Assembly (NCBI GenBank): GCA_030066685.1
Contig: JASJBF010000049.1
Location: 1-37,070, forward strand
Origin: Kiloniellales bacterium
Lineage (GTDB): Bacteria > Pseudomonadota > Alphaproteobacteria > Kiloniellales > JAKSBE01
DNA: 37,070 nt
Reading direction: 5' to 3'
Positions 1 to 3,884 of this stretch are shown one piece after another. Every line of letters starts with the position of its first letter. Within the stretch, counting starts at the first letter, position 1. Under the pieces are notes generated by a model. That model was not told where the DNA came from and did not search any database. It worked only from the letters and a program-made list of their open reading frames with translations. The position numbers were made by a program, and so were the translations under genes.

Positions 1-45
1 CACGCGCTTCCCAAGATCCACACCGATGATGCTAACCTTCTTCAT
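1..45 (-). CDS. IS110-family transposase, N-terminal fragment (runs off left edge)
   Basis: Read on the minus strand from an ATG at 45-43, the 15 visible codons give MKKVSIIGVDLGKRV. The I-G-V-D-L-x-K pattern is typical of the first strand of the RuvC-like DEDD domain of IS110/IS1111 transposases, and the Asp would be the first catalytic acid. A GGGAGG ribosome binding site lies 8 nt upstream of the ATG on the minus strand. The rest of the gene is outside the window, so completeness, the Tnp20 domain and the IS110 versus IS1111 subgroup cannot be judged. The motif match is good but short; another RNase H-fold protein is a remote alternative. Confidence 0.7.
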   Translation of the reverse strand, partial: MKKVSIIGVDLGKRV

Positions 46-114
46 GGATGGCCTCCCTTCGTTGGTCTTTGCGATAACCAACCTTGGCACATCGATGCCG
101 TAAGGGGGCCATCC
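46..114 (-). other. Structured leader upstream of the IS110-type transposase; possible bridge-RNA region
   Basis: The non-coding DNA just upstream of the transposase start folds well. GGATGGCC at 46-53 pairs with GGCCATCC at 107-114. Inside that stem, GTTGGT at 61-66 pairs with ACCAAC at 77-82 around a 10-nt loop. In the IS110 group the non-coding end upstream of the recombinase gene is known to encode a bridge RNA that specifies target and donor DNA. The position and fold here are compatible with that, but the guide loops and the element end are not identified. The outer boundary of the element, somewhere before about 185, is not visible. Confidence 0.4.
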
Positions 115-207
115 ACCCCATCAAGTCCGGGCATGACATCCAGATTGGAAGGGCATCCGGGGTTTGTGTGAGCGCCCGAGGCCGTCAAGTCGACCCCCCA
201 CCTTTTT

Positions 208-2117: not shown

Positions 2118-3884
2118 ATGCTGCGCCGCCAGACGTCATTCGCAACCCTCGCCCTGCTGGCCCTCGCGGCCTGCGCGGAGACCGGGGGCAGCCCCGATCC
2201 CCTCGCGGAGAGCGCCCTGCGAGTCGAGGTCAAGAAGGCGACGGCCGCCTTTCGGCGCAACACCGCCTCGATCTACGACCTCAGGGTCGCCCTGGACATC
2301 GGCGAGACGCCCGCCACCATTCACAGCGTCGAGGCCGAGGTCGCGGGACAGGCCGGCCGGGTCCCGCTCAACGACGAGGGCGCCGGGGTCTACGCCGGAG
2401 CGATCCCCATGCCGCGCTGCAACGACACCGCCAGTCTGCGCTTCGTGGTCAGCACCGAATACCGTGAAGGCCGGCGCCGAATCATCGAGGAGATGGACGC
2501 GCCCGCCGAGGGATCGATCGAGATCCCGCTGAGCGGCCGGCCGCCGATCGACTGCGCCGGCTTCCAGCGCTTCTTCCTGCGCCACTTCACGGTCGACAAC
2601 ACCGAGGACGCGGTCGACGCCGAGCCCGGCGACGGCATCTGCGCCACCGAGGCCGACGCCCCCGAGGGGGCGGCGGTCTGCTCGCTGCGCGCCGCGGTCA
2701 TGGAAGCCAACGCCCTGCCGGGCCCCGACCTGATCCTGATGCGCCGCGGCACCTACGAGCTGACACTCGAGGATACCGACAAGCTGGAGGCCGAGGGCGC
2801 GGCGCACGCCGAGGTCGGCGACCTCGACATCACCGATTCCCTGACCATCCTCGGCATCGGCGATCCCCGCAGCGGCATCGTCAAGGTCCCGAGCGTCGAG
2901 GCCGGCCAGCGCTTCCGTGTCTTCGAGGTCCACGCCTATCCGGAGGAGGGCGGCGACCTGGGACCGCGGGTCGAGTTCCGCAGCTTCCGGATCGCGCGCG
3001 GCCTGGCGGACGACGGCCCCGGCGGCGCGGTCCTCAACCGCGGCTCCCTGCGGATGGACCTGGTGCGCCTGAGTGAGAACCAGGTGGTCTTCGACGAGGA
3101 CGGCGCGGCGGCGCAGCCCGGGGCCGGCGGCGCGATCGCCAATTTCGGCCGCCTGGTCATGTCCCGTTCGATCGTCCAGCGCAACCTGGTCGCCTCGGCC
3201 AGCGCCAAGACGCCGGACGCCGAGGGCGCGGAGCCTCGCCGCGGCCGCGCCGGCGGCATCTACAACGCCGCAGGCGCCTACCTGGAGGTCGAGGAGAGCC
3301 TGATCGGTGGCAACACGGCGCCCCTAGGCGGCGGCCTCTTCAACGAGGCCGGCGCGCAGCTCCGCCTGACCAACTCCACCGTCGGCGAGAACGAGTCCTT
3401 GGTCGCCGGCGGCGGCCTGGCCAACGCGGGCGAGGCGGTCTTCAACAGCGCCACCATCGCCTTCAACAAGTCCCTGAACGCGGCGGGCGGGATCGAGGCC
3501 CGGGGCCGGGTCGAGATCACCAACAGCATCGTTGCCGAGAACCGCTCGGAGGAAGGATCGGACTGTGTCGGCGAGATCGCCAGCAGCGGCGGCGGCAACG
3601 CCTTCGGCCAGGGCAACGACTGCAAGATCGTCTCCAGCTTCGGCAAGGACCTGCTGTCGGGCCGCTACGGCATCGAGGACGTCCTGCAGCTCAACGACGG
3701 CAACGTGCCCAGCTACGCCCTGAAGGAGATCGTCGGCAGCAGCCGCGTCTCGCTGATCGACCAGGGCGCCGCCGAGGGCGCCTGCACCGCGAAGGACCAG
3801 CGGGCCGCCGCCCGGCCCGCCGACGGCGACGGCGACGGCGAAAGCCGCTGCGACCCCGGCGCGGTGGAGTTCGACCGGCCCTAG
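2118..3884 (+). CDS. Beta-helix lipoprotein with CSLREA-type and choice-of-anchor Q domains
   Basis: This is a 588-residue protein with a clear lipoprotein signal: LALLALAAC, lipid-modified Cys at residue 19. After a beta-rich region (about 30-145), residues 156-195 match the CSLREA N-terminal domain: FTVDNTEDAVDAEPGDG, then a cysteine and CSLRAAVMEANA. The middle (about 230-500) has repeated G-G-x-x-N/F-N-x-G/A units such as GGGLFNEAGAQLRLTNSTV, the pattern of a right-handed parallel beta-helix. The C-terminus has RCDPGAVEF, the signature of the choice-of-anchor Q domain. Such proteins are surface-exposed and of unknown role; adhesion or polysaccharide contact is only a guess. The start is supported by the GGGAGGA site at 2104-2110. 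An isolated gene followed by a strong hairpin. Confidence 0.85.
   Translation: MLRRQTSFATLALLALAACAETGGSPDPLAESALRVEVKKATAAFRRNTASIYDLRVALDIGETPATIHSVEAEVAGQAGRVPLNDEGAGVYAGAIPMPRCNDTASLRFVVSTEYREGRRRIIEEMDAPAEGSIEIPLSGRPPIDCAGFQRFFLRHFTVDNTEDAVDAEPGDGICATEADAPEGAAVCSLRAAVMEANALPGPDLILMRRGTYELTLEDTDKLEAEGAAHAEVGDLDITDSLTILGIGDPRSGIVKVPSVEAGQRFRVFEVHAYPEEGGDLGPRVEFRSFRIARGLADDGPGGAVLNRGSLRMDLVRLSENQVVFDEDGAAAQPGAGGAIANFGRLVMSRSIVQRNLVASASAKTPDAEGAEPRRGRAGGIYNAAGAYLEVEESLIGGNTAPLGGGLFNEAGAQLRLTNSTVGENESLVAGGGLANAGEAVFNSATIAFNKSLNAAGGIEARGRVEITNSIVAENRSEEGSDCVGEIASSGGGNAFGQGNDCKIVSSFGKDLLSGRYGIEDVLQLNDGNVPSYALKEIVGSSRVSLIDQGAAEGACTAKDQRAAARPADGDGDGESRCDPGAVEFDRP

What the first reader, a model, noticed from the sequence alone, without database searches (positions are those of the whole stretch)
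1..185. IS110-type element at the left edge with a folded leader that may encode a bridge RNA
The minus-strand N-terminus MKKVSIIGVDLGKRV is IS110-like, and its leader contains two nested stems (46-53/107-114 and 61-66/77-82). IS110 elements are known to use a bridge RNA from the non-coding end upstream of the recombinase gene. If this is such a leader, its guide loops would name the target site in flanking DNA.
Basis: partly seen in the sequence, partly recalled or inferred. Interest (0 to 1): 0.5.

Follow-up and report, generated by a model that had tools for sequence, protein, structure and literature searches.

The report
Transposase leader that hides its start
The window edge cuts through an RNA-guided jumping gene of the IS1111 group; the folded piece upstream of its enzyme gene is not the guide RNA but a conserved RNA structure that appears to hide the enzyme's ribosome-binding site, while the real guide RNA lies at the other end of the element.

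Summary
Window 1-123 (minus) is the left end of a 1,352-bp IS1111-type element, complete on contig C44: 339-aa DEDD recombinase, 13-bp subterminal inverted repeats, short left end, 238-nt non-coding right end. It sits in a REP-like palindrome. Guide segments matching the insertion site lie in the right end: own site in the top 5% for 56 of 71 elements, against 3 of 71 (chance) for the leader. Yet the leader is a real, conserved RNA: three covarying helices, found by a covariance model in 69 of 72 held-out sources, ISEc11-group elements included, where the closing helix is separate from the inverted repeat. That helix buries the Shine-Dalgarno sequence, so its likeliest role is to throttle transposase translation, as shown experimentally for ISPpu9, a relative. 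A near-invariant wobble base just inside the gene (T in 86 of 88, 18 expected) makes an antisense -10-like box, which suggests, without proving, an Asr9-like antisense RNA over the leader. New variant of a known kind; function predicted, not shown.

The parts
1..45 (-). First 15 codons of the IS1111-type transposase (recombinase) gene; the rest is outside the window (full copy on contig C44)
   Evidence: Pfam
46..123 (-). Left-end leader of the element; 123 is the first base of the element if the TGAT core is counted to it
   Evidence: covariance model hit 123-37
102..116 (-). P1, 5' arm (contains most of the left subterminal inverted repeat GTGGATGGCCCCC); pairs with 44-59, A54 bulged
   Evidence: fold; covariation; repeats
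44..59 (-). P1, 3' arm: Shine-Dalgarno GGGAGG (57-52), spacer, and the A and U of the start codon
86..99 (-). P2 hairpin GGCAU-CGAU-GUGCC, near-invariant in relatives
61..82 (-).
33..38 (+). Antisense -10-like box TAACCT inside codons 3-5 (class TAnnnT)
8..13 (+). Possible antisense -35-like box TTCCCA, spacing 19; weak
   Evidence: read off the sequence; class statistics
124..138 (.). Left half of the REP-like target palindrome (minus strand TGTCATGCCCGGACT); flank proper begins at 139
   Evidence: target sites

Best explanation
Window 1-123 is the left end of an IS1111-type, RNA-guided insertion sequence inserted in a REP-like palindrome. Shown by sequence: its target guides lie in the right-end non-coding region downstream of the transposase gene, 5' CCCGGGTCAAG (pairs with the top strand, one G.U) and then CGGACTTGATC (identical to the top strand), on either side of a small hairpin. 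Shown by comparison: the leader is a conserved three-helix RNA (P1 closing; P2 and P3 inside). Inferred: P1 pairs the start of the leader with the Shine-Dalgarno sequence and spacer, so translation of the transposase is held low in any transcript that carries the whole leader, including those from the promoter formed when the ends join in the circle, whose predicted start lies at about the first bases of P1. Opening then needs something in trans or a change of fold; the best candidate is an antisense RNA started inside the first codons, as Asr9 in ISPpu9.
For: Element: complete copy on C44, three further left ends (window C49, C4, C1) and two further right ends (C41, C14), all joined to the same palindrome at the same place; left repeat = reverse complement of right repeat. 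Target: 73 REP-like sites in the genome with at most 1 mismatch, 0 for the reversed control; left plus right flank give exactly this palindrome. Guides. Leader: 19 of 20 pairs with changes on both sides, covariation 0.275 vs 0.105 shuffled (0 of 500) and at most 0.058 when slid (alignment fitted to the model). On tree-independent pairs, P1 partners change together in 21.0 of 32 (slid 2.2-5.5), P2 5 of 8 (0-0.6), P3 20.7 of 46 (1.4-8.2). P1 is not just a third copy of the terminal repeat: 11 ISEc11-group elements have a P1 of at least 8 pairs with its own sequence, and in 9 of these a separate 13-14-bp terminal repeat was located. Shine-Dalgarno unpaired probability 0.23 with the leader, 0.51 without the P1 5' arm, 0.42 with upstream shuffled; below shuffled in 88 of 94. 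Junction promoter: -10/-35-like boxes with 4.41 and 4.38 of 6 matches vs 3.05 and 2.38 in shuffles. Antisense box. Siddiquee et al. (PMC11187229, passages): a mini-IS with 50 bp of left end moves when transposase and RNA are supplied, so the rest of the leader is not needed as DNA.
Against: No RNA or protein was measured. P1 is imperfect in many members, often by C.A mismatches (pair 21-158 unpaired in 31 of 96, pair 15-162 in 16 of 99); the outer P3 pairs are kept poorly (85-143 unpaired in 35 of 93, 94-137 in 42 of 93). On the 28-sequence seed two of five measures do not beat the shuffles (pairs with double changes 7 vs 5.8, 119 of 500; pair types 13 vs 13.7, 413 of 500). The left repeat matches the right repeat better than it matches the P1 3' arm, so part of P1's covariation in the main clade may be imposed by the DNA repeat. 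3 of 72 held-out sources (L046, L069, L070) and 7 of 27 outer elements have no model hit. Why the leader should stay closed in every transcript is unexplained without a trans factor, and none is shown. The antisense -35 is weak (4.24 vs 3.94 expected) and its spacing of 18-19 long.
Confidence: 0.8

Rival explanations
1. The leader encodes the bridge RNA, its loops naming the target and donor sites.
For: It is folded and conserved; in the IS110 group the bridge RNA is upstream of the gene (PMC11208160, passages).
Against: No complementarity to own insertion site beyond chance (leader 3 of 71 in top 5%; right end 56 of 71). The leader is about 75-90 nt; IS1111 elements mostly carry their RNA downstream (PMC11187229, PMC11208160). 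The leader model has no hit in a right end, apart from the leader of a second element that begins behind the one in L135.
Confidence: 0.02
2. P1 is only a third DNA copy of the subterminal repeat (a transposase or regulator binding site), and P2 is a palindromic operator; the RNA fold is a by-product.
For: The P1 3' arm resembles the right repeat; left and right repeats are nearly always perfect; P2 is almost palindromic DNA and near-invariant.
Against: In the ISEc11 group P1 differs from the repeat and still pairs, with several sequences (TGGATCCTC/GAGGATCCA, CGGAGCCTC/GAGGCTCCG, AGGGCCTCC/GGAGGCCCT). P3 covaries and has nothing to do with the repeats. Loop lengths vary. 50 bp of left end suffice for movement of ISEc11 (PMC11187229, passage).
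Confidence: 0.1
3. Read-through insulator of the IS10/IS50 kind: the hairpin forms only in transcripts entering from outside, while the element's own promoter starts inside it.
For: The hairpin includes the left end itself, so outside transcripts carry it.
Against: The junction promoter places the start at about the first bases of P1, so the element's own transcripts carry P1 too; in the ISEc11 group P1 lies far downstream of the left repeat. IS10/IS50 behaviour is recalled, not looked up here.
Confidence: 0.15
4. The invariant wobble T near the gene start is not a promoter but serves translation initiation or an RNA contact.
For: It is within the first five codons, where low structure is usually favoured (recalled); the -35 signal is weak.
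Against: 86 of 88 T and no C, mostly in Ile, Val, Leu and Pro codons, against 18 T and 47 C expected; the pattern kept is TAnnnT on the other strand, 79 of 88 vs 23.2; present in 14 of 15 outer elements with a leader hit of at least 16.7 bits and at that place in 0 of 8 with a weaker hit or none, though L181, leader decayed, keeps it.
Confidence: 0.4

Closest known systems
IS1111-family insertion sequences with seekRNA (ISEc11, ISKpn4, ISPa11; Siddiquee et al. 2024, PMC11187229)
   Same: DEDD transposase of 339 aa, 13-bp subterminal inverted repeats, long downstream non-coding region, top-strand match 5' of bottom-strand match, no bases gained or lost against the palindrome, junction promoter
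   Different: The abstract, sections 6, 9, 13 and passages that I read describe no structured leader or translation control; this element targets a REP-like palindrome of its alphaproteobacterial host
ISPpu9 of Pseudomonas putida (IS110/IS492 type; PMC8450116)
   Same: Inserted in REP sequences; 5'-UTR folds over the ribosome-binding site and mutations that weaken it raise translation; antisense RNA promoter at the gene start
   Different: ISPpu9 belongs to a type without clear inverted repeats and has a 244-nt 5'-UTR; the leader here is about 75-90 nt, has a P1-P2-P3 form and shares its closing strand with the terminal repeat; no antisense RNA has been shown here
IS621 and the IS110 group with bridge RNA (PMC11208160)
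   Same: Recombinase family and guide principle
   Different: Bridge RNA in the left end there, in the right end here

Membership tests
IS1111 group | DEDD/RuvC domain plus Transposase_20 domain, 330-350 aa | tested here: met
   339 aa; PF01548 63.8 bits and PF02371 73.3 bits, both over cut-off; GL-P----S(T)G reads GLVPRQSGTG
IS1111 group | Subterminal inverted repeats of 7-17 bp | tested here: met
   GTGGATGGCCCCC / GGGGGCCATCCAC, 13 bp (first 12 compared)
IS1111 group | Longer non-coding region downstream of the gene | tested here: met
   78 nt upstream of the gene versus 238 nt to the right repeat
IS1111 group | Target-matching segments in the downstream region, top-strand match first | tested here: met
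   CCCGGGTCAAG at 86, CGGACTTGATC at 113 of the region; own-site test over 71 elements
IS1111 group | RNA co-purifies with and is needed by the transposase | not testable with these tools
   needs an experiment
IS110 group (bridge RNA upstream) | Guide RNA encoded in the left end | tested here: not met
   leader shows no own-site complementarity, 3 of 71 in top 5%
IS110 group (bridge RNA upstream) | No or only 2-3-bp subterminal repeats | tested here: not met
   13-bp repeats
Transposase leader with occluded ribosome-binding site (ISPpu9-like control) | Conserved structure containing the ribosome-binding site | tested here: met
   (prediction and comparison)
Transposase leader with occluded ribosome-binding site (ISPpu9-like control) | Weakening the structure raises translation | not testable with these tools
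   needs reporter fusions
Transposase leader with occluded ribosome-binding site (ISPpu9-like control) | Antisense RNA promoter at the gene start | tested here: inconclusive
   TAnnnT 79 of 88 vs 23.2 expected; -35 weak

The most novel reading that the evidence does not exclude
A large part of the IS1111 family, ISEc11 included, carries a conserved riboregulatory module: a three-helix leader that keeps the transposase start closed, plus a convergent promoter hidden in synonymous positions of the first codons whose antisense RNA, started at the start codon, opens (or further shuts) the leader. In the main clade the terminal repeat is at once a DNA end, the junction promoter's initial transcribed sequence and the closing strand of the switch.
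Probability: 0.4. Interest if true: 0.68.

Novelty: new variant of a known kind. Interest (0 to 1): 0.5.

Why it matters
IS1111/IS110 elements are programmable RNA-guided DNA movers, and how they keep their transposase in check is little known. If the leader works as predicted, one conserved structure sets transposase level across much of the family, including the experimentally used ISEc11, and it can be tested with a simple reporter.

Tried and rejected
Bridge RNA in the leader: tested and rejected (a first, looser version of the test gave right end 16.2 vs 13.6 and 39% of own sites above the 95th percentile, leader 11.6 vs 11.8 and 3%). Leader as relic or copy of the guide RNA: no model hit in a right end apart from the second element's leader in L135. 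Leader pairing with the right-end RNA in trans: own 8.11 vs others 7.86 over 36 of the 71 elements, no clear signal. A sense promoter inside leader plus 60 nt of gene: 7.17 vs 7.41 shuffled, none; the antisense strand gave 8.17, which led. Rfam on three loci (L007, L079, L095): one irrelevant match, E 0.66. RNAalifold on the plain alignment of 94 leaders recovered P1 and P2 but not P3, hence the model-based alignment. Pair 21-158 scores badly because the commonest letters of its two sides do not belong together. Empty site: in G027 the intergenic region next to the window's gene holds two uninterrupted REP-like palindromes, one exact, but the stretch shared with the C14 flank there is repeat sequence only (74 nt), so I do not claim which of them is the orthologous empty site. 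Comparison of whole copies in the genome was not possible: all copies but the one on C44 are broken at contig ends or, on C2, decayed. Rows dropped: of 110 loci with enough upstream sequence, 4 with a weak left repeat (L046, L047, L069, L070) and 12 duplicates, leaving 94; of those with both ends and flanks, 79, 71 after removing identical right ends; 88 of 94 genes for the codon test; 94 of 97 proteins in the tree. Literature: ten full-text searches of the PMC library listed no paper on a conserved leader of IS1111 transposases; ISPpu9 (PMC8450116) is the nearest. The 2006 paper on the ISEc11 junction promoter, seen only in a reference list, was not read.

Full report
What the window holds. 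The window is contig C49 of a 73-contig genome. Its first base is a contig end. The minus strand from window 45 to 1 encodes the first 15 residues of a transposase; the same sequence on contig C44 continues to a complete gene (339 aa) that passes PF01548 and PF02371. The left end occurs on C49, C44, C4 and C1, and degenerate on C2; the right end on C44, C41 and C14, and in part on C2. On C44 the element runs from TGATGGGG to ...CCACACA, 1,352 bp, counting the TGAT core to the left end as Siddiquee et al. count the 4 bp of ISEc11 (PMC11187229, passage). The repeats are GTGGATGGCCCCC and GGGGGCCATCCAC, 13 bp.

Target. The four intact left ends follow TGTCATGCCCGGACT and the three right ends of C44, C41 and C14 precede TGATCCGGGCATCC. 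Put together these are the REP-like palindrome CCCGGACTTGATCCGGG, of whose pattern the genome has 39 forward and 34 reverse sites with at most one mismatch, 0 for the reversed pattern. Two same-genus genomes keep the gene beside the window's element (86-87% identity). In G026 that gene and the flank of C14 (92% over 1.1 kb) lie on one contig, so the window's copy most likely continues into C14. In G027 the same intergenic region holds two uninterrupted REP-like palindromes, one of them exact; which of them corresponds to the insertion site is not settled.

Guide RNA. The region between gene and right repeat on C44 contains CCCGGGTCAAG, which pairs with the top strand CTTGATCCGGG with one G.U, and, 16 nt behind it, CGGACTTGATC, identical to the top strand, with a GGGG...CCCC hairpin between. 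Further down, CCCATCA and ACACATGA match the left and right ends of the element, as donor guides would; this was read by eye and not tested. Over 71 elements with both flanks, the right-end region (last 70 nt left out) fits its own insertion site better than dissimilar sites of other elements: own site in the top 5% for 56 of 71, mean rank 0.927, 0 of 2000 permutations reach the mean. The leader: 3 of 71, mean rank 0.486, 1560 of 2000. Four right ends ranked their own site below the middle (L071, L112, L135, L137).

Leader. Relatives came from 61 genomes of the order, 385 of the class and the best 80 loci of a scan of named genomes. 94 distinct leaders were aligned. A covariance model from 28 of them hit 97 of 100 sources at E up to 0.1, 69 of the 72 not used for building; five of the 72 are outer elements. 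The two extra hits are the leader of what looks like a second element behind the first in L135 (one search shows a second gene start there) and one opposite-strand hit over the leader of L072. Among 27 outer loci (L159-L185), 16 had hits below 0.01, 4 weaker ones up to 0.21, and 7 none (L161, L162, L164, L167, L169, L175, L181). On the 99-row alignment 19 of 20 pairs show changes on both sides, score 0.275 vs 0.105 +/- 0.005 shuffled and 0.030-0.058 slid. That alignment was fitted to the model, and on the 28-row seed the score also beats the shuffles (0.150 vs 0.068, 0 of 500) while the counts of doubly changed pairs and of pair types do not. A tree-based count on pairs of rows on separate, supported branches was therefore added: partners change together in 21.0 of 32 (P1), 5 of 8 (P2) and 20.7 of 46 (P3), against at most 5.5, 0.6 and 8.2 when slid.

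Is P1 RNA or DNA? In the main clade the 5' arm of P1 is the left terminal repeat, which is kept complementary to the right repeat, so covariation of P1 alone would not settle it. In the ISEc11 group the terminal repeat lies about 110-190 nt upstream of the start and P1 has its own sequence: TGGATCCTC/GAGGATCCA, TGGATCCTC/GAGGATCCG, CGGAGCCTC/GAGGCTCCG, TGTGGAGCCTC/GAGACTCCACA, AGGGCCTCC/GGAGGCCCT. Of 16 elements looked at there, 13 had a P2 by a strict pattern (not L174, L175, L181); of these L185 has P1 on the repeat like the main clade, L171 a P1 of only 5 pairs, and 11 a P1 of at least 8 pairs of its own, 9 of them with a separate terminal repeat of 13-14 bp; in L176 and L180 no convincing terminal repeat was located. 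Several of the 11 are close relatives (E. coli plasmids). This is the best evidence that P1 is kept for RNA pairing.

What P1 does. Its 3' arm is the Shine-Dalgarno sequence and the spacer up to the start codon. The predicted unpaired probability of the Shine-Dalgarno hexamer is 0.23 over 94 leaders, 0.51 without the P1 5' arm, 0.42 with the upstream part shuffled; lower than shuffled in 88 of 94; for the window element 0.17, 0.59 and 0.33. The junction of right and left ends makes a -10-like box across it (CATGAT, TACAAT or TATAAT at the same place in 52 of 71) with a -35-like box 16-18 nt upstream (mean matches 4.41 and 4.38 vs 3.05 and 2.38 shuffled), so the transcript should start at about the first bases of P1. 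Hence P1 can form in the element's own transcript and the simple read-through model does not suffice. In ISPpu9 a 5'-UTR structure over the ribosome-binding site lowers translation and the antisense RNA Asr9 raises it (PMC8450116: abstract, section 16 and passages).

Antisense box. At one codon near the start (third or fourth) the wobble base is T in 86 of 88 genes, where codon use further inside the same genes predicts 18 T and 47 C. On the opposite strand this makes TAnnnT in 79 of 88, 23.2 expected under synonymous redraw; the best -35 scores 4.24 vs 3.94 +/- 0.055. The predicted antisense start is at about the start codon. Of 24 outer elements looked at (L169, L172, L173 not among them), 15 have a leader hit of at least 16.7 bits and 14 of these have the box at the same place (not L166; for nine of them the start I had given was 6 nt late, which I allowed for); of 8 with a weaker hit or none, 0 have it there; L181, whose leader is decayed, has it. 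These elements are related, so this is an association, not a test. That the box is conserved is shown; that it is a promoter is a guess.

Verdict. The element and its right-end guide RNA are a new member of a known family. The leader is a conserved, probably regulatory RNA that my ten searches did not show as described for this group; its likely mode of action has a precedent in ISPpu9. It is ordinary in kind, well supported in structure, untested in function.

Noticed in passing
G000:C32:178500-180771 (L058): A second, different element of the IS110 superfamily (319-aa frame, N-terminus MTQTTIGIDISKDRLDAH) with a long stretch upstream of the gene that may be non-coding; a fairer place to look for an upstream bridge RNA.
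   Followed up: no
G000:C20:122363-123498 (L057): A second IS1111-type element, 54% identical in protein, cut at a contig end, with a right-end region related to that of the first (72% over 113 nt).
   Followed up: partly
G000:C2:75670-76305 (L008): A decayed copy with an internal deletion that still keeps the leader (model hit 43.1 bits).
   Followed up: partly
Right repeat of IS1111 elements: In the circle the right terminal repeat lies in the spacer between the -35-like and -10-like boxes of the junction promoter, and in the main clade the left repeat is the first transcribed sequence.
   Followed up: partly
window 2118-3884 (+): Large frame with a lipoprotein-like start and a CSLRAAVMEAN motif, resembling CSLREA-type parallel beta-helix surface proteins (recalled, not searched).
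   Followed up: no
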